Part shown: positions 20,694-38,138 of the stretch, piece by piece | Layout of the letters: every line of letters starts with the position of its first letter | How positions within the stretch are numbered: the first letter of the stretch is position 1 | From: Vitis vinifera | Taxonomy: Eukaryota > Streptophyta > Magnoliopsida > Vitales > Vitaceae | Length of the DNA stretch: 64,000 bases | Direction: 5' to 3' | Assembly: GCF_030704535.1 (NCBI RefSeq) | Contig: NC_081823.1 | Location: forward strand, 4,434,501 to 4,498,500 | Translations under genes and position numbers: made by a program | The notes under the pieces: model-generated | Told to the model about the DNA's origin: nothing | What the model saw: the letters and a program-made list of their open reading frames with translations, nothing else | The model's database searches: none

Positions 20694-23600
20694 TGGTATC
20701 AGAGTTGCCCCTCTTCATATCTCCTTCTCTTTGCATCAGTTTCATGATTTCACCATGACAATCTCAACTCAATCCTCTGGGATACAAGTTGGAGCTGCCA
20801 ATTCATCCTCAACCATAGCTTAGTCAATGCAGATGTTGAATCATGCACTGCCCATTAAACTTGATAAAGATAACTACATGTTGTGGATAACCCAAATGGA
20901 GAACTTGATCTATGCAAACGGCTTGAAGATCATGTTGAAGGTCCTACAGTCCGTCCTTCAAAAACAACAAGCAATGGTGAAACAAATCCAGAATTTATTC
21001 TTTGGCAAAGATTTGACTGAATGATCCTCAGTTGGATTTACTCCTCACTTATTCCAGAAATTATGGGACAAAGAATAGGGTATCAAACCTCCCATGAAGC
21101 ATGGTTTTCTTTGGAAAAGATTTTCTCGGCTTCATCCAAAGCTCGGGTGATGCAATTACAACTAGAATTTCAGACCATGAAGAAAGGATCTCTTTCAATG
21201 ATGGATTACATCCTCAAGTTGAAGAATCTGGCTGACAGCTTAGCTGCCATTGGAGAACCAGTACACAATAGATATCATATTCTGAAACTGCTAGGAGGGC
21301 TTGGTGTAGAATATAATTCCATTGTGGCCTCTCTTATAGTAAGAGAAGATGAAGTTTCACTACATACGGCGCATAGGATTCTATTAACCTATGAACAACG
21401 CTTGAATCTTCAAAATTCAACAAAAGACAATGTAATCTCTACAAATCTCACTACCACGTCGTCATATCACCACAAAAACAGAAGGAATTCCAATCGAAAT
21501 TTCTTAGGAAACAATAGTAGAATCTTCAACCCTGGACGTAACTCTCATGCAAACAGAAACTCAACCTCTCAAAATTGCCCTCAATGTCAACTTTGTGGAA
21601 AGTTTGGACATGTTGTGGATCAGTGTTATCATCATTTCGATATAAACTTCCAAGGGGTAAATAACAATTTTGAAACCAAGTCCCATGTAACTAACAATAA
21701 CCAAGATCAAGCCCACGCCATGATAACATCTCCTACCCACTCATCAGCTTTCTCAAACCACATCTCTGGACAATTTACAATCATATAATGGCAATGACAA
21801 GGTGACAATCGGGAATGGTACGCAACTTCCCATTCTTCATACTGGTACTAAAATTTTTCAGTTTCCTTCTAAAGTGTTTCAGTTAAAAAGAGTTCTTCAT
21901 GCACCTCATCTTGCAACCAATCTTGTTAGTGTCTCTCAATTCTATGTTGACAACAATACATTTGTTGAGTTTCATCCTCAGTTCTTTTTTGTCAAAGAAC
22001 AAGTTACCAAGAAAGTTCTTCTTGAAGGTCATCTTGAACGAGGATTATATAAGTTTCCTACCATTTTTAGCTCCTCTACAGATTGCTTGTTCTTCAACTT
22101 CAACAACTCTTCATTTTCAAATTCCACGACTGAGCTTTGACATTCTCGATTGGGCCATCCTGCTGAAGATATATTTTGAAACATGCTCTCAACAATTGTA
22201 ATATCCCTTATCAATATAATAAACTCCAAATTTGTTGTGTCTACCAATATGCCAAAAGTCACAAGCTACCATTTTCGTTGTCTATGTCAAGAGCATCTCA
22301 TCCTTTAGCACTTGTTCATGCTGATATCTGGGGTCCTGCATCCACTCCATATACTTTTGGTGCACGATTTTTTCTACTACTCATAGATGATTTCTCAAGA
22401 TTTTCTTGGATTTATCCACCACACACCAAAGATTAAGAACTTCCGATGTTGTAAAATTTCGCACTTCAGTGGAAAAACAGCTTGACTTCAAAATTAAGAG
22501 CCTACAATCAGATGATGGTGGTGAATTCAAAGCATTTTCTTCCTATCTTGTTGCTCATGGCATAGAACACAGGTTTTCCTACCCATACACACCTGAACGG
22601 AATGGGTGAGTCGAGCGGAAACTGAGACAAGTTACAGAAACTGGTCTTGCTCTTCTAACTAAAGCCTCCTTACCTCTCTCTTTTTGGTTGTATGCTTTCC
22701 ATACTGCTATATTTCTCATCAACTGTCTACCTACCAAGATGCTTAAATATCAATCTCCCTTTCAAACTCTTTTTGGGAAAACTCCTTATTATCATTTTCT
22801 CAAGACATTCGGTTGTCTTTGCTACCCATATATTCGACCATATAATAAGCACAAATTGCAATATCGTTCTACTCTGTGCATCTTTCATGACTATAGCAAC
22901 ACTCACAAGGGATATTTATGTTTCGATCCAAAAACTACCAGATTATACATAACCAGACATGTTGTCTTTCATGAATCAATCTTTCCAACTCTATCACCTT
23001 CAACTTCTTCTAATCCTAGTTTTTTTCCGTTTCCACTCCTGTTTTTCTTCCCATACACATGTCTCCTTCTCATGCTTTACATTCTATTGATGCTCAACAA
23101 CATAACCCCACACCTTTGTCTTCATCACTTCACTTATCTTTTGACCACATCCTTCCTACTATACATAACAATGTTCCTCAACATCCTCCCATTATTAATA
23201 GTCATCTTATGATCATGCGTGCCAAGGATGGCATTATAAAAAAGAAGGCCTTCTTGTCTCACATGCCCATGGAACTAGCAACATTTGCTTAGGCTTCCAA
23301 AAGTATCTACTGGACCAAGGCTATGCAACAAGAGTATGATGCTCTACTAAAAATGGAAACATGGAATCTAGTTCCTACTCCTCCAAATGCCAATATTATT
23401 GATTGCAAATGGGTCTACAAATTAAAACATAACCCAGATGGCACCATTGCTCATTCCAAGGCTCGCCTAGTTGCCAAAGGTTTTACCCAAACACATGGCC
23501 TTGACTACTTTGAGACTTTCAGCCTCGTTGTCAAAGCTTCAACCATCAGAATAGTGCTTGCTCTAATTATCTCATATAATTGGACAATTCGTCAGCTTGA

Positions 23601-24805
23601 TGTATAGAACGCCTTCCTCAACGGTGACCTCCAAGAGCAGGTCTTCATGAGCCAACCACCTGGTTTTATCAACACCCGGTTTCCTACTCACGTCTGCAAA
23701 CTTAACAAAGCCATTTATGGGCTTAAGAAAACTCCTAGAGCATGTTACACCAAGCTCGGTCATGCTCTTCTTGGCTGGGGTTTTCAAGCTTCCTGTGCAA
23801 ATAGCTCCATGTTTTTTCCTCACATTGCCAACGATGTGCTTATCTTGTTAATCTATGTTGATGACATCCTCGTAATAGGTAGTGACCCTCATCGTGTTTC
23901 TTCATTTGCTTCTTGTCTTAATGCTACATTTGCTCTTTCGAGATCTTGGTCATTTTCACTATTTTCTTAGTCTGGAGATTATGCAAGCAGAAAACTCAGT
24001 CCATTTAAATCAACACAAATATGTCCACGATCTTCTTCAAAGTACCAGTATGTTTGAATCCAAGTATGCTTCTACACCTGGTATGGTTGGTCAAAATTTA
24101 TCCAAACATGATGGAGGTCATTTCCATGATGTCACACTATATCAGAGCATAGTTGGTGTTATTCAATATCTCACTCTCATAAGACCTGATATTTCATTTG
24201 TTGTCAACAAGGAGTGCCAGTTTATGAGTAGCCCCTCCAACACACATTGGCTTGCTGTAAAATGCATCTTACGCTACCTCAACTTATGGTCTTTCCATGT
24301 AACCATCTTCCGCGTTGGACATTCAAGCATACATTGATGTCGATTGGGCTTCTTGTCCAAATGACAGAAGAAGCACTAGTGGCTATTGTATTTTCATTGG
24401 ACCAAACTTGGTTTCATGGTCATCCACTAAGCAGAAAATTGTTTCAAGGAGCAGTGCGGAATCTGAGTATCGTGGACTAGCTGTTGCCACTTTCGAGATT
24501 GCCTGGATTCAATCTCTACTCACCGAGTTATGTCTTTCTCCTACAATACCACCAATTCTTTGGTGTGACAACCAAAGTGCTACCCATCTTGCTGCCAATC
24601 CTGTTTTTACACACCAACAAAGCATATTGAACTCGACCTTCATTTTATTCGTGATAAAGTTCTTCAGAACCAACTCCATATTCAGTATCTTCCTTCTTCC
24701 GACCAAATTGCTGACATCTTCACCAAACATATCTCAAGTTCTTAGTTTTTTTAGCTTTCGGACCAAATTCTCTATTGTTTCCAAACCCATGAGCTTGCGG
24801 GGGGA

Positions 24806-25084
24806 TGATAGACCACAACTACACCAGCAACAATCACAACTGCACCAGCAACAGAAGGCAGTTGCAACAATAGAACTCAACAAGACCCAGATCACTCAAG
24901 AACTGTGCAAATAGTTAGGAATCTGGTAGTGTAGCTTGAACTGTGCAGGTAGTTAGAGTCTGGTAACATAGTTTGTTACAGTAAAAAAATATAAATAGCA
25001 TAGTAGAGAACCTCTCCATGATATGTAATTTCTTCCTCTTAATATACAGAAACTAGATTTTCATCTTCCTGATACAAACTTTCA
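24806..25084 (+). repeat. 3' LTR of the copia element
   Basis: 279 bp, same ends as the 5' LTR. Longer because of an extra copy of the CACAACTRCACCAGCAAC motif near its start (a 21-bp tandem duplication). Confidence 0.9.
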
Positions 25085-31308: not shown

Positions 31309-32598
31309 AGAATTCAAACACTGCTTAGTGAATTATTTATGTAGGTGCCAGCTTCTCTGACTAAAACGGGCTGCAAAGGTTCCTCTGTTGTGGCTCAGGG
31401 CACTGTAATCTGCAACTTAAGATTCACTAGTATTCTAAATTCAGATTCCCTCTGGATCAGGTTGGTAATAAGCAGAAGAACATGTATTCTACAGTCACCT
31501 TATGTGCTACTGTCTCTCTCATTTTTGCCTTTTCTCCTCAGGATGCATAGGGCTTATATGATTAGTGAACTGTACACAAAACTATAATCCGGTTCTAACC
31601 ATTTAATTTCAATTATCTTGAGAATTTTTGAAGGTCTAAAATCCTTTGAAACATCAATAGGAAATGCAGATCAGATAGTAAAAACTAGTCAAATAAGGCT
31701 TCTTCTTGTGACTGTTATAAAGCCATAGGATGATGGCTTGGAATAATTTCAGGCAAATGGGGAAAAGAATTGAAAATCAACAAAGATAAGTTAGAATCAG
31801 ATGACTTCATCTGAATTCTGTTGTCTCTTTGTAAAAAGAACATTTAAAAGTACACTGAAAATTACAGTGTATTCAGCAGTAGGTAATGTGCTTCTTCAAG
31901 ATCTCTCAACATGAAACTAAAAGAGTTCTTTCTTAAGTTCATTTTGGCAAGGTCTAAGGTTTCTTTGGGTTTGTAAATTTATCTTTGGTAGCTTTTGTGA
32001 ATGGCTTGCCTTTCAGTTAGAAGCCTCCTATGTCAAAAAACACATACACACACACACACAAAGAATCATCATGCCAAATGACGATTTTTCTTCAAGTTAG
32101 TATCATTGGAACCAACAATTCATAAAAGAATTCCTTGCAAAACATGATAATTCTAATTAATCTAATTAATATATCTCACCATGCTGTATATTTCAAACCT
32201 CTTCTTTTTCATGTTTCCGGAAAAACATCAAAGATTTTTGGAAAATATTGACTGAATAAGTTAGTACACAGTGGGAGCACCATAATGACAGCTCTCAACC
32301 TTATAAGAGAAAGGATTGGGGAAATATTTGGTCCCCATATGAGAACTAAGGATGTTTCAGAAATAATAATTAATTTAAAAAGCAACGCACAGAATAAAGT
32401 TTCTTACTCCACAAGATATTTCTTATGTTGCAGGCATATTACAGCTGCACAAACATGGTGCACTTGTAGCTGTTTTGATCCATCTGTGAAAAGTACTATC
32501 TTTCCTAAATCCCTCATAAAAACAAGACTTCACTTGTTCATGATCTATACCTGTATATTTTCATTTATCTTCTAAAATCTATCTTATCTGCAATAGAA
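31309..32598. other. 3' flank of receptor C and upstream of relic P2
   Basis: 31309-32140 matches the flank of B (15359-16060) with an (AC)n tract near 32041-32062. 32528-32598 matches the DNA before P1. The middle (about 32150-32525) is not shared with the B segment; it contains a 96-codon open frame with no recognisable domain. Otherwise nothing seen. Confidence 0.6.
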
Positions 32599-33125
32599 AT
32601 GTTGACGGGGTATCATCGCTGCCTTCGTTTTTGCCTTGGTTTCTTTCTTAATCCTCTTTGAATTCTTGATTGCATTGCTGCTATAGCTAAGAGTTAATCT
32701 TTAAGTGATGGTGAGACTTTAGTATCCTCAGGCCAAAGCTTTGAGCTAGGCTACTTCTCTCCTGGAAAGTCAGAGAACAGGTGCTTAGGAATATGGTACA
32801 AAAGTACCCCAAAGACAGTTGTTTGGGTTGCAAACAGAGACGACCCAATAGCAGAATGTTACAGGATTTTAACCATCAAGAGTAGCAGAGAATACAGTTG
32901 CACCGCTCCTAGATACTGGAAACCTACTTCTCAGGGATGGCATTCAAGAGAGTTCTCTGAGTTATTTATGGCAGACCTTTGATTATCCAACAGACACAAT
33001 GTTAGCAGGAATGAAGATAGGCAGGAACTTAAAGACTGGCTTAGAACGATATTTAAAATCATGGAAAAGTGCTGATGTTCCATCTATCGGAGATTTCACT
33101 TATAGAATTGAAGTTCGTTGGCTTT
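32599..33125 (+). pseudogene. Receptor relic P2: 5' part of ectodomain exon
   Basis: Starts with an ATG in the same context as P1 and runs through signal peptide, B-lectin ([32 protein letters not shown]) and the first part of the S-locus glycoprotein domain (LERYLKSWKSADVPSIGDF). A deletion after the IKSS-like stretch and at least one early stop break it. Homology stops at about 33125 in the IEVRWL stretch. Sister of P1, with the breaks in different places. Confidence 0.85.
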
Positions 33126-33552
33126 CAAAAATGAAAAGATGGGTCAAGTTGAGATTGGGTCATTTGGGTTTGAAAAAGTTCGAAATTTCTTAAATCATAG
33201 AGTGGCAAAGAGAGTAGGGTGATGAACCCATTTGGTTGTGGAAGATTTCCTTCACTTGGGCATGTGTTTTATTCAAACGATGCGTTTTACTCTGTAGAGG
33301 AAGAGGAAACGGAGAAAATCGAGTGCTTATTTGAACTGAGCTTTAAAGTGACCAAAACGATGCGTTTTGATGGAGGGCGTAGAAAACGGAGGAAATTTTG
33401 CATCTTGATCTGTCACAGATAATTTTGATTTAAGAATTTTGGAATAACTACTTTTGCTTATGTGGCAGCATTTGGTTGGTCACTGCCATCTGCGGCAAAA
33501 CACTCACAGTAGAGAAGCTAGACTCAGGTGAATTTCCCGCCGACTTGGCCGT
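33126..33552 (+). other. Intergenic region upstream of the CCII gene
   Basis: No similarity to the receptor flanks. Two copies of AAACGATGCGTTTT lie 79 bp apart (33275-33288 and 33354-33367), possible cis elements or a small repeat. Short open frames have no recognisable domain. Confidence 0.45.
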
Positions 33553-33562
33553 TTATATATAA
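33553..33562 (+). promoter_or_regulatory. TATA box of the CCII gene
   Basis: TTATATATAA lies about 130 nt before the chosen ATG, in a suitable place for a leader of roughly 100 nt. Preceded by GC-rich TTTCCCGCCGACTTGGCC. Confidence 0.55.
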
Positions 33563-33688
33563 CCCCTACAACCCCAACAACCAACTTATACCCAGTTAGA
33601 GAGAGATAGTTGGTGTTGTAGTTAGGACTCAGAAGTGATTTTCAGCTATAAGTTTTCACGGGAACCAAACACCAAGATCATCGAGAAG

Positions 33689-35268
33689 ATGGACTTCCAC
33701 CCTTTGCAGGTTTCACCACTGCCAAGGAAAGATCAAGATCTCCAAGAATACATCAACGTAGTACCAGAAGAATATGTGGCCATTGAAGACCACTTGGAGA
33801 ATCCCAATTTTCAACTTCACGTCCGTGAAATCATAAAGGTGACGCCAATAATTAATAAGAACAATCTTCACTTCTTTTTTTGTTTTTTTGTTTTTTGTTT
33901 TTTCATAATCTTTTTAGTTCTGAATGCATGCATTTTTTATGTTCTTTCACTTCTTTGTACAGAGAAAGGTGGAAGATGCGGAAGAAAATCTCAAACCATT
34001 TGCTATCTGCTTTCTGAAAATTGCTTCAAGGATGGGGAACGACACCTTCTTGGTGCATGGATTCTTGGTAAGATAAATCCTACAAATTCTGACAAGTTAG
34101 TGGGAAATCAAACAAATCCTTTTTCTCATACTTCTTGCTGTGGTCTGATCAAGAGCAGATGGAAGCCAAACTCGGAACTTGCATAAGAAAGATACTTCAA
34201 ACGGAGCTTCAGATTCCCAGAGGACTGAAATGGCCAGTTCAAGATGTTTCAAGCGGTAATTAGTCTCTTTATTCATCTATGGTTTTTCTTCTGACTTTTT
34301 TTTTTTTTTTTGTCCTGTGATCTTGCCAAGAAGATGAAGGAAAAGAAAAAAAAAAAAGTTGAGTTTCATTTAGATTTTAAGGTTTGAGATTTTGATCAAT
34401 GAAGAGTTTGATTACAATGGCAGATGTGGGGTTGACCATGTTGAGACCATCCAAAATACCAGCATCACTACTTCTTGATGCCCACCCCAAGATGTCGCCC
34501 CTGCTGCAACCCTCTCAATCCACTGGAGCAATTCCTTCTTCTGGATCCATTCTCCAGGTAATCAATAAAAGAACAGCCATAGTTTGCTGGGAAAACGAAC
34601 TTGCAAATAATCAATGTATATATCCCTACATTAATTATCAGTTTCTTTCCTTTTCTTTTTCCTTTTTCAATTCCAAAGATTAAAAAAAACTGGCACCAGA
34701 AATGTCTTCTATCCGTTTAGTTTTCAGACACCGAAGCTAAGAAAGCTGTTGTGTCTTGATACTTCCCTTGGCTTCTTTTGCTTTCTGGGTCGCAAACCAA
34801 GAAAACAAACTCTTAGTTTTCTTTTATTTTCTTTTCTTTTCTCAGCAACCAAATGGGACATGTCAGGACGGTGGACTTCAATGCCTGGAGGAACTAGGGG
34901 CACAATACACAGGGGAGGAGGTGATGAGCTCAGAGGCTCCAAAGCCAGACTCTCCACAACCTAGTGGTCCACCGAGACTCACCCCACCGAGGGTAGGTAG
35001 GATGAGGAATGAACCATATCCTCAACCATATTCACCTAGACCAAACAGAAAGGCACCACCAAGCTCAGGCGGGGCAGCGGGTGAAGGAACATCAGGCTCA
35101 GGGACACAGGGAGAGGGTACAGGACCAACAGACTCAGGGACACAGGAAGGGGGTGAAGGACCACCAGGCTCAGGCCCACCGGGTTCAACGGGCGAGGCGG
35201 TAGGCCCAAGCAATGACCCAGAAACTCCAAAAGGGGTTTGTAGTTGCAAAAATTGCTGCATAATATAG
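33689..35268 (+). CDS. Unrecognised five-exon gene; 302-aa protein ending in CaaX-like CCII
   Basis: Exons 33689-33838, 33963-34067, 34159-34255, 34424-34557, 34846-35268, all GT-AG with pyrimidine-rich acceptors. Phases (0,0,1,0) join without a stop to give 302 aa, which argues for a real gene. The ATG at 33689 (MDFHPLQVSP) is used; the open frame upstream begins with GTG. Residues 1-118 look globular (EYVAIEDHLENPNFQLHVRE, a KRKVEDAEENLKPF stretch, TCIRKILQTELQIPRG). From about 195 the protein is Pro/Gly/Ser/Thr-rich with imperfect SGTQ-EGxG repeats, probably disordered. It ends VCSCKNCCII: CCII fits a CaaX box (299-302) with further cysteines at 294 and 296, so prenylation and palmitoylation at a membrane are possible. 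Family not recognised. The only apparently intact non-receptor gene here. Confidence 0.72.
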
Positions 35269-36322
35269 CGCGTTTGGTAGTGTGGATGAGAGTATCTCAG
35301 TGTCATCATTGAATTGAATCCGATTCTTAATTTTTGGTCTTATCTTGAGTTTTTGTTACAACAAACACATACATGTATACTCAAATTCGTATCATTTTTC
35401 AATAATATAGGCTGCGCTTACAATAAATATTTGAAAGTGAATCTTAATAAACAAGCAATACTGTTCGCTTGTTTTTTTTTTTTTCATTTAATAAATTTGC
35501 ATTTTAGGCATGCAATGACATGTTTGTATAATTTTTTTGATCCAGTAAATGAGACTTGTATTAAAAATGTCAAAAAGGGTAAACCAAAGTACACATAATG
35601 TATATAGCAGTAGCTAAAAAACGCCAAAAAAAAAGAGAAAACAAAAAAATACTCCCTCCCTCAAACCGATTCCAACCAATCAATGAAATCTACTATGAAT
35701 ATCAATATTTCACCAATAAACAGTTTGGTCTAAATTAACGAGTTACATAAAATTAAGTATTTCAACCTTTGAATTGAGAGTTCCACATTCTCAAAAGATC
35801 TTCTATTTCTCTCTTTCCAAATAGTTCAAAAAATGCTCAAGTATTTTTATAATGTACTTACAATTGTCTAAAAAAATAAGTATTTATTTTGACTTTTGAA
35901 TTCTTTTTATTTTTAAATTTTTGGTTGAACGAAGGCAATGGTGATGCTGTTGTATGGCAATTATTTTTTAAAATAATTTTTTGTTCACTAAAAAAAACAG
36001 AAAATACAGTTTAGCAATCAACAAAAAAATTCAGTGTTTTAAAAAATAATTATATAAATATGAAAAATTATTTAAAATGTAGTATGGATAAATTTTATTT
36101 TTAAAACATATTTTAAAAAATAAAAATAGGTTAAAAAAATATTTTAGGTTCTCAAACAAACATTTATTTTACAAAACATCATAAAACAGTTTAAATTTTT
36201 TTTTTCTAAAAAACCATTTTTTATAACGATTTTCACTTTCCAAGTAGAACTTAAATCTTTTATTTTAAAATCACTAAGATCGTATCCTTTTTGTTTTCAC
36301 CTCATGAACGTTTGCTTCTAAA
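35269..36322. other. 3' flank of the CCII gene and AT-rich DNA
   Basis: 35269 onward is probably 3' UTR (AATAAATATTTG near 35422 as a weak polyadenylation signal). The rest is AT-rich with no gene seen. Confidence 0.45.
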
Positions 36323-36774
36323 TAAGGGTCTCCAAAAAGCCCGCGGCCCGCTTTAGGCCCGGCCCGAGCCCGCCTATGGGCGGGCCGGGTCGTGGGCCTA
36401 AATTTAGGCCCGGCCCGTAGGTCCGCCCCTTTAAAAAAAAACTACAAAAATAAAAAAGTATTAAAAAAAAATTCAATTAATAAACATAAAAGGAATGTAA
36501 CTTAATTGGTTAGAACCTTGAAATTTAAACATGAGGGGAGGGGTTCGAATCCCCCCCTCTCCCTTCCCTTTTTTGAAAGCCATTTTGGCTTATTTAAAAA
36601 AGTCCGCCGGCCCGCCCCGCCCAGCCCGCTAGCCCGCGGGCTCATAGGCCGGGCCGTGGGCCTAGCATTTTAGCATGGCCCCGCCCGTTGACCAGTCAAC
36701 GGGCCCATAGGCCCGGCCCGAGCTGGGCCGCGGGCCTCCTATTTACAACCCGCCCCGCCCGTTGGAGACCCCTA
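36323..36774. mobile_element. hAT-type MITE with perfect target-site duplication
   Basis: Ends TAAGGGTCTCCAA and TTGGAGACCCCTA (13-bp terminal inverted repeats, one mismatch). It is flanked on both sides by the 8-bp CTTCTAAA (36315-36322 and 36775-36782), as hAT elements make. Both subterminal parts are rich in GGCCCGGCCC-type motifs, giving a sharp GC island in AT-rich DNA. 452 bp, no transposase. A tRNA-like segment sits in the middle. Confidence 0.9.
36496..36560 (+). other. tRNA-like segment inside the hAT MITE
   Basis: TAACTTAATTGGTTAGA (36498-36514) resembles a D-arm/A box and GGTTCGAATCC (36542-36552) is a consensus B box/T-loop, about 30 bp apart as in a tRNA. No convincing acceptor stem or anticodon arm is seen, so it is tRNA-derived rather than a working tRNA gene. 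Confidence 0.5.
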
Positions 36775-36782
36775 CTTCTAAA

Positions 36783-38138
36783 TATAGCAACTATCGAAGA
36801 AAATATGGAAGCTCACTTATATACAATGTTCTTAAATATCAAACTAATGTATAGGACTAACTGCATTGTTGACTAGTCATGTTTGGTTCAATACACTTTC
36901 TAAGCCATTTTACGCATTAACCAACATTGAACCAAAACATCAAAACCTTTGGTTCGTTTTGCTTGTTGAGGTTTTTAAGTAATAATAAACTAATCATATA
37001 TTAATGTTTAGTTCACTTTTTGAGCATTAACTAGTATTAAACATCCTCGGATGCAGATAAGAAAAGACAAGAAAGATCAAATGGCATAGAAAAATCGAAA
37101 GGGTAGGGATAGGGACATCTCTAGAGCAACAAGTGCTCCAAGAGGTCCTTCATTGGCAATTAGGATTATAGGATATTAGTCAGTGTCAACAAAATCTTCC
37201 CTAACAGCCCCATTGGGCCCCTCTTTTAATGATGAATGGAGACTCTTGGTTGGATTTATTTCTTAAGCCATTTTAAAGCATTAATCAATATTGAATTTGT
37301 AAATCAAATCGGTTCAATTCACTTTTTGAGATAACTAATAAAATTTGATTTCATTTTTTTTTATTGATATATGAAAATTTTTCTTAATAATTATATTATC
37401 ATTTTGTTATTTAATAAAATTGAAAAATACTCATATATTTACATTTTATTTTCATTATGATTTAGAGTTTGCCGGAAAGATTCTGGTTAAAACTCATTTA
37501 GTCTAAAGTCTTTTTGTTAGCAATTTTTATTCAAATGATTTTCTTGATTTTTAAAATTTTATATAACAACTAGAAGAAAGACTTCTAACTCTTTCAAAAT
37601 TGCCTTTAATCGGGTTTATCAAAATAAAAACATGAATATTTTAATCTTTTTAATCATTTTATAAATAATTTTAATTTAATAATTATTTTAAAATTTAATT
37701 TCAATAGCACATAAATGATCTATTTATGTTATTATGACATGACAATGTTGAAGGGGAGTTGAACTAATGATGGTATTAGTGAATAATGACTTGACAATTT
37801 TTCCAATTCAACAGCACCAAAAGGGTAAGAGTAAGACACATCTTGATTCAATTAGATGGGTTTTAAGCACTCCATGATCTCAATTCACCCCACATTCCAA
37901 TTAACTGATAGAATTTGTTTCAGGCATGAGACCCATCTGATGAATTATGGCCAAAATTATGTCTATAAACACAACTCTTCTCTGCTGATTACAACAGCAC
38001 TGGCCCTATAATTGTGTCATGATGCTTCATTTGTCCATGTGCCAATGTACAAATCCACTTTGAAAATATAATTTCTTCCCTTTCTTGTCTTTGATCTCTT
38101 AATCTTGTTAGAAAAAGTTCTTTGATGACATTCCCACT
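36783..38138. other. Intergenic DNA
   Basis: No gene, repeat boundary or receptor similarity recognised. AT-rich with short low-complexity runs. Confidence 0.45.

What the first reader, a model, noticed from the sequence alone, without database searches (positions are those of the whole stretch)
33689..35268. Unrecognised 302-aa gene with a CaaX-like tail inside a receptor-kinase array
Five exons join in phase with no stop, under a TATA box, so the gene looks real. The product has a globular N-terminal half, a long Pro/Gly/Ser/Thr-rich linker with SGTQ-type repeats, and ends VCSCKNCCII. CCII can serve as a CaaX box, and nearby cysteines could be palmitoylated. I cannot place it in any family. 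It is the only apparently intact non-receptor gene in 64 kb of receptor duplications, so a role near membrane receptors is a tempting but unproved idea.
Basis: partly seen in the sequence, partly recalled or inferred. Interest (0 to 1): 0.72.

Follow-up and report, generated by a model that had tools for sequence, protein, structure and literature searches.

The report
Plant gene family with lipid-anchor tails
This looks like a real, fast-changing plant gene that belongs to a family clustered on a few chromosomes of this genome; its intact relatives keep a tail suited to lipid anchoring, and it seems to sit among receptor genes by chance rather than working with them.

Summary
Five GT-AG exons (33689-35268) join into a 302-aa frame ending CKNCCII; no Pfam family is hit. 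The gene is not a singleton: related places lie on contigs C19, C9, C2 and C3 of the same genome. Two relatives, L043 and L004, keep the same five exons and an open frame. Between the window gene and L043, all 10 exon indels counted are multiples of three and none of 9 intron indels is, so the gene is protein-coding. Ten C-terminal ends were read, in four groups (CCII, CCIL twice, CCTQ); all keep Cys-Cys at -4/-3 and the stop. Truncated copies lack the tail. The receptor link fails: of 150 lectin-receptor matches scored (224 candidates), none lies at C19 14.2-15.5 Mb, C2 or C3, where much of the family sits. A metal-binding (HMA) domain was tested and not found. Best reading: a cytosolic, prenyl-anchored, proline-rich disordered protein of a birth-and-death family; its role is inferred only. 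Side finding: six copies carry an inverted exon 2 that folds into strong RNA hairpins.

The parts
33554..33561 (+). TATA-like box
   Evidence: TATATATA at 33554; the 289 bases before the start codon align to L043 at 80% over 238 sites
33689..33838 (+). exon 1, start codon, residues 1-50
   Evidence: the homologous ATG is kept in L043, L051 and L004 and changed in eight other aligned copies
33963..34067 (+). exon 2, residues 51-85
   Evidence: 76-90% identical to paralogue stretches
34159..34255 (+). exon 3
   Evidence: L043 lacks 36 nt in frame
34424..34557 (+). exon 4
   Evidence: L043 lacks 15 nt in frame
34846..35268 (+). exon 5: QPNG...LQC motif, Pro/Gly/Ser/Thr-rich spacer, Cys tail, stop TAG
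   Evidence: AlphaFold without an alignment: mean pLDDT 52, no helix or strand element listed
35079..35174 (+). 36-nt tandem repeat coding the SGTQ units
   Evidence: similar SGTKGGS-type repeats in L043, L048 and L080
35254..35265 (+). CaaX box CCII (Cys299-Cys300-Ile301-Ile302)
   Evidence: CCIL or CCTQ in the relatives

Best explanation
A genuine protein-coding gene of a tandemly expanded, fast-evolving family in this genome (probably grape; the species was not tested). Its product has no signal-peptide-like start (by eye) and is cytosolic. Cys299 of the CCII box is geranylgeranylated by GGTase-I, possibly with S-acylation of nearby cysteines. A long disordered Pro/Gly/Ser/Thr spacer holds the poorly conserved N-terminal part away from the membrane, so the protein acts as a membrane-tethered adaptor or decoy-like scaffold. 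Shown here: gene structure, family, frame conservation, retention of the Cys-Cys CaaX-like end. Inferred: prenylation, membrane site, adaptor role. My split: coding gene about 0.9, prenylated about 0.65, adaptor role about 0.3.
For: Five in-phase GT-AG exons. L043 (590 aa) and L004 (575 aa) have the same five exons. Window against L043: 10 of 10 exon indels counted are multiples of 3 (the repeat part of exon 5 not counted), 0 of 9 in introns; one-sided Fisher p 1.1e-5. Ten C-terminal ends read, including the window's: 10 of 10 have Cys-Cys at -4/-3 followed two codons later by TAG, with last residues II, IL or TQ; an eleventh end (C19:15479031) matched to the last query residue but was not read. 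X = I or L is assigned to geranylgeranylation and Q to farnesylation in PMC12609287 (passages). Exon 5 scores as disordered (FoldIndex; pLDDT 52).
Against: No expression data. dN/dS is near 1 (0.94 over 246 codons; 1.22 in exons 1-4; the bootstrap of dN-dS spans zero), and six exon 5 pairs give 0.70-0.89 with upper bounds of 1.07-1.27, so amino-acid constraint is not demonstrated and recent loss of function is possible. Of the copies I read, only L043, L004 and, as far as read, L003 are complete besides the window gene; truncated copies such as L039 and L059 have no Cys tail. Cys at -4 alone is not rare: 1342 of 48,265 Arabidopsis protein sequences (PMC12609287 section 3.1). The window's 3' flank does not resemble the paralogues' (46-53%). 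The tail is shared by descent and its retention was not tested against a neutral model.
Confidence: 0.6

Rival explanations
1. A decaying duplicate: the window copy still has an open frame by chance and recent age but is no longer functional.
For: dN/dS near 1; many relatives read here are broken or partial; it is an isolated copy away from the family clusters; its 3' flank is unlike that of the relatives.
Against: At about 17% intron divergence from L043 the frame, the splice sites and the tail are intact and every exon indel counted is in frame.
Confidence: 0.25
2. A diverged isoprenylated metal-domain protein (HIPP/HPP, PI21-like): HMA domain, proline-rich spacer, CaaX.
For: Same order of parts: N-terminal region, Pro-rich spacer, CaaX. 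By eye, residues 75-100 resemble the second half of an HMA domain.
Against: No HMA match in Pfam at E<=10 (HMMER's filters may drop weak ones). Against an HMM of 12 HMA halves from this genome, filters off, the window scored -1.1 bits and 191 of 1000 shuffles did as well; L054 scored -1.8 (319 of 1000); L043 gave no match. None of the 104 HMA matches listed lies at a family cluster.
Confidence: 0.07
3. A partner of the neighbouring G-type lectin receptor kinases, kept in the array for co-function.
For: It lies inside the C19 receptor array, and a lipid anchor could put it at the plasma membrane.
Against: Family places at C19 14.2-15.5 Mb, C2 and C3 have no receptor match among the 150 scored, and no other copy was found inside the array (whose counts are lower bounds).
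Confidence: 0.08

Closest known systems
HIPP/HPP isoprenylated plant proteins (PI21-like)
   Same: Pro-rich spacer and C-terminal CaaX; multigene family
   Different: No HMA domain found here
CaaX-tailed plant signalling proteins such as ROP GTPases (features recalled)
   Same: C-terminal CaaX with X = L or I and nearby Cys
   Different: No GTPase or any other Pfam domain
RIN4/NOI proteins (recalled, not compared residue by residue)
   Same: Disordered, with a C-terminal Cys cluster that could anchor it to membrane
   Different: No Pfam match of any kind, so no NOI/AvrRpt-cleavage domain
Lineage-specific (orphan) tandem gene families of plants (recalled as a kind)
   Same: No curated relatives found, birth-and-death, fast change
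   Different: Carries a retained lipidation-type tail, which gives a testable handle; whether it is lineage-specific was not tested, as no other plant genome was at hand

Membership tests
Substrates of CaaX prenyltransferases | Cys at -4 with an acceptable a2 and X | tested here: met
   CCII in the window; CCIL or CCTQ in relatives; X rules from PMC12609287 passages
Substrates of CaaX prenyltransferases | Prenyl group actually attached | not testable with these tools
   Needs an enzyme assay or mass spectrometry
HIPP/HPP | HMA domain | tested here: not met
   Pfam none; HMM no better than shuffles; fold comparison not done, as the spliced protein was not folded
HIPP/HPP | C-terminal isoprenylation box | tested here: met
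Rab-type GTPases (CCXX end) | GTPase domain | tested here: not met
   No Pfam family at E<=10
RIN4/NOI | NOI (AvrRpt-cleavage) domain | tested here: not met
   No Pfam family at E<=10
The family described here | Five-exon frame with QPNG...LQC motif, Pro/SGTx-rich exon 5 and CCxX end | tested here: met
   Window, L043 and L004 complete; exon 5 of L048 and L080 compared

The most novel reading that the evidence does not exclude
A lineage-specific family of prenyl-anchored disordered proteins under diversifying selection, held in check by its own dead copies: six copies carry an inverted exon 2 that folds into strong hairpins able to yield small RNAs matching coding members, the window gene included. 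In the two hairpin copies whose start site could be aligned (C19:15110 kb and C9:22432 kb) the start codon is ACG.
Probability: 0.08. Interest if true: 0.65.

Novelty: new variant of a known kind. Interest (0 to 1): 0.37.

Why it matters
It turns an isolated unknown gene into a family that can be tested: four groups of ends with three different CaaX boxes, two of the geranylgeranyl type and one of the farnesyl type by the usual rule, on fast-changing disordered proteins. If the boxes work, the family shows membrane anchoring kept while the rest of the protein turns over. The hairpin-bearing copies offer a case for asking whether dead duplicates become silencing loci. It also removes a tempting but unsupported receptor story.

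Tried and rejected
HMA (HIPP/PI21) idea: order of parts fits, sequence does not; the hhalign run failed on a malformed alignment and was not repeated. PDB sequence searches gave only weak hits (best E 0.071, 0.26). NCBIfam gave one hit far below its cut-off. Co-location with NLR genes: none of the 124 scored of 980 NB-ARC candidates lies at a family cluster; the rest were not scored. Rfam: nothing for five loci holding five of the six hairpins at E<=0.1; in window 32000-37000 two matches below gathering score, MIR6426 at 34295-34359 (T- and A-rich, intron 3) and PrrB_RsmZ at 36529-36664, taken as chance. Papers: searches showed no paper on this family in the listings, which were capped (15 of 286; 8 of 19). 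Of papers I saw passages and section 3.1 of PMC12609287; all others only as listings with the start of the abstract. One search was a background search on inverted duplication and miRNA origin (8 of 313 listed).

Rows dropped or mended: the L003 row was aligned in the wrong orientation and is not used. In one search the exon 3/4 boundary of L043 was set one base off (60/120); corrected to 61/119. In the indel count the last two gaps (85 and 3 nt) lie at the cut end of the aligned stretch, in the exon 5 repeat part, and were left out; the whole exon 5 differs by 960 nt (1383 against 423), a multiple of three. Grouping of the 119 matches into about 40 places was by eye.

Full report
Check of the observation. 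The tail is VCSCKNCCII. A TATATATA stretch lies at 33554. Exon 5 holds a 36-nt tandem repeat, 35079-35174, 2.7 copies. Pfam gives no family at E<=10 for the whole protein; for residues 1-141 alone there is one hit far below its cut-off (CEP76_N, E 0.076). NCBIfam gives one hit far below its cut-off.

The gene is one of a family. A DNA search of the window's own genome gave 119 matches and a protein search 69; both counts are lower bounds. They lie on C19 (3.97-4.11 Mb and 14.2-15.5 Mb, plus the window at 4.43-4.50 Mb), C9 (22.41-22.44), C2 (18.35) and C3 (18.2-18.3). A consensus-like N-terminal query gave 112 matches, 111 of them on these four contigs and one chance-level match on C6 (E 1.3). 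I grouped by eye into about 40 places and read stretches around many of them, not all.

Intact and broken members. L043 (C19:4.009-4.013 Mb) has an intact five-exon frame of 590 aa with GT-AG introns. L004 (C19:15.36 Mb) has one of 575 aa, and L003 (15.48 Mb) is identical to L004 over all 3605 bases held, although its last part was not read. Not intact among those examined: L046 (first exon replaced), L051 (exon 5 frame ends early; a piece with the family's tail lies about 5.5 kb on in L083), L048 and L050 (no start codon at the homologous place; exon 3 missing; L048 also has one extra base in exon 2), L080 (exons 2-4 rearranged), L058. In L042, L045, L052, L054, L055, L056 and L058 the homologous start is ACG, in L057 AAG.

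Is it coding? Between the window gene and L043 the aligned intron sites differ by 100 of 652 (JC 0.172), while exons 1-4 give dS 0.215 and dN 0.262, and all exons dS 0.368, dN 0.346. Six exon 5 pairs among window, L043, L048 and L080 give dN/dS 0.70-0.89, each with 1 inside its interval. dN/dS near 1 cannot show constraint. But the DNA alignment has ten exon indels (9, 36, 9, 3, 3, 15, 36, 15, 18 and 36 nt, the first 15 crossing the exon 2 donor), all multiples of three, against none of nine in the introns (305, 4, 7, 2, 5, 70, 7, 1, 1); one-sided Fisher p = 1.1e-5. The repeat part of exon 5 was left out of the count; two gaps at the cut end of the stretch fall there. Nonsynonymous change in exons 1-4 is higher than intron change (65/292, rounded, against 100/652, p = 0.012), synonymous change is not (16/83, rounded, p = 0.34); this hints at diversifying selection but rests on one pair and one alignment.

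The tail. Ten C-terminal ends were read: the window (CKNCCII), L048 and L084 (EPGCCIL), L080 and L081 (KKCGCCIL), and L043, L046, L058, L082 and L083 (KCNCCTQ). All ten have TGC TGC at -4/-3 and TAG as stop. An eleventh place, C19:15479031, matched to the last residue and was not read. Of 86 exon 5 columns shared by window, L043, L048 and L080, 23 are invariant, three of them Cys: the LQC Cys and the final pair. Copies with a truncated exon 5 (L039, two in L059) run out without a Cys tail. By the usual rule, X = I or L points to geranylgeranylation and Q to farnesylation (PMC12609287, passages); Cys at -4 occurs in 1342 of 48,265 Arabidopsis protein sequences (section 3.1), so the motif alone is weak and its retention across groups is the better argument.

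Receptors. Of the 150 S_locus_glycop matches scored (224 candidates), the C19 array runs from about 4.22 to 4.94 Mb and includes the window; none lies at C19 14.2-15.5 Mb, on C2 or on C3, and one fragment lies on C9 at 22.085 Mb. In the window, Pfam was run on 6 of the 20 ORFs and on two shorter ones: five are lectin-receptor pieces, two are copia-type element pieces and one (24303-24914) had no match. So the receptor setting belongs, as far as seen, to this one copy.

What it may do. Exon 5 scores as disordered, and a single-sequence AlphaFold run on it gave mean pLDDT 52 and no helix or strand element. The N-terminal part is only mildly fold-like by FoldIndex and varies by in-frame gaps. I therefore favour a prenyl-anchored, mostly disordered adaptor; the adaptor role is inference. 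The HMA reading, attractive from the order of parts, was tested and failed: -1.1 bits against a profile of 12 HMA halves of this genome, matched by 191 of 1000 shuffles.

Side finding. Six family places carry an inverted copy of exon 2. The longest, in L055, has 127-nt arms, 83% complementary; its RNA fold is -190.1 kcal/mol, z -12.75, none of 100 shuffles as good. All six fold better than the mean of their 40 shuffles, z -5.2 to -16.0; in four of the six one arm is only partial. Three of six hold a 22-nt exact antisense match to the window mRNA, two of these being segmental copies of each other; the other three reach 13 to 18 nt. The start codon is ACG in the two that could be aligned there; in the other four the start site did not align. 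Arm likeness across places points to one ancient inversion copied with the family, so they may be relics. Small-RNA data would decide.

Noticed in passing
L055 3170-3660; L026 1485-1975; L053 2290-2730; L041 2640-3080; L044 2105-2545; L085 95-570: Inverted copies of exon 2 forming strong RNA hairpins at six family places; possible small-RNA source or relic.
   Followed up: partly
L047 2964-3384; L049 5270-5667; L052 5261-5681; L053 5180-5600; L056 2206-2606; L058 1957-2359: A scrambled version of the gene, with intron 1 and exon 1 pieces reversed (in most of them next to intron 4 and the exon 5 start), that has itself been copied several times.
   Followed up: no
C19 3.998-4.012 Mb and 4.034-4.049 Mb; C19 15.36 and 15.48 Mb: Segmental copies: matches repeat at offsets of about 36.5 kb and 116.5 kb; L003 and L004 are identical over 3605 bases.
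   Followed up: partly
L051 6652-9001 and L083 56-436: Exon 5 of one copy seems interrupted by an insertion of about 5.5 kb; the same peptide stretch is read about 1 kb after the break and just before the resumed piece, as the two repeats of an LTR element would give (not tested).
   Followed up: no
window 21021-23212: Copia-type retroelement pieces (gag and polymerase SH3-like domains).
   Followed up: no
window 32698-33193: Broken B_lectin receptor fragment directly upstream of the gene.
   Followed up: no
C19 4.22-4.94 Mb: Lectin receptor matches listed are all on + below about 4.51 Mb and on - above it, with one + at 4.667 Mb.
   Followed up: no
window 36340-36430: Short G+C-rich repeat-like stretch (GGCCCGGCCCG) in otherwise A+T-rich DNA.
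   Followed up: no
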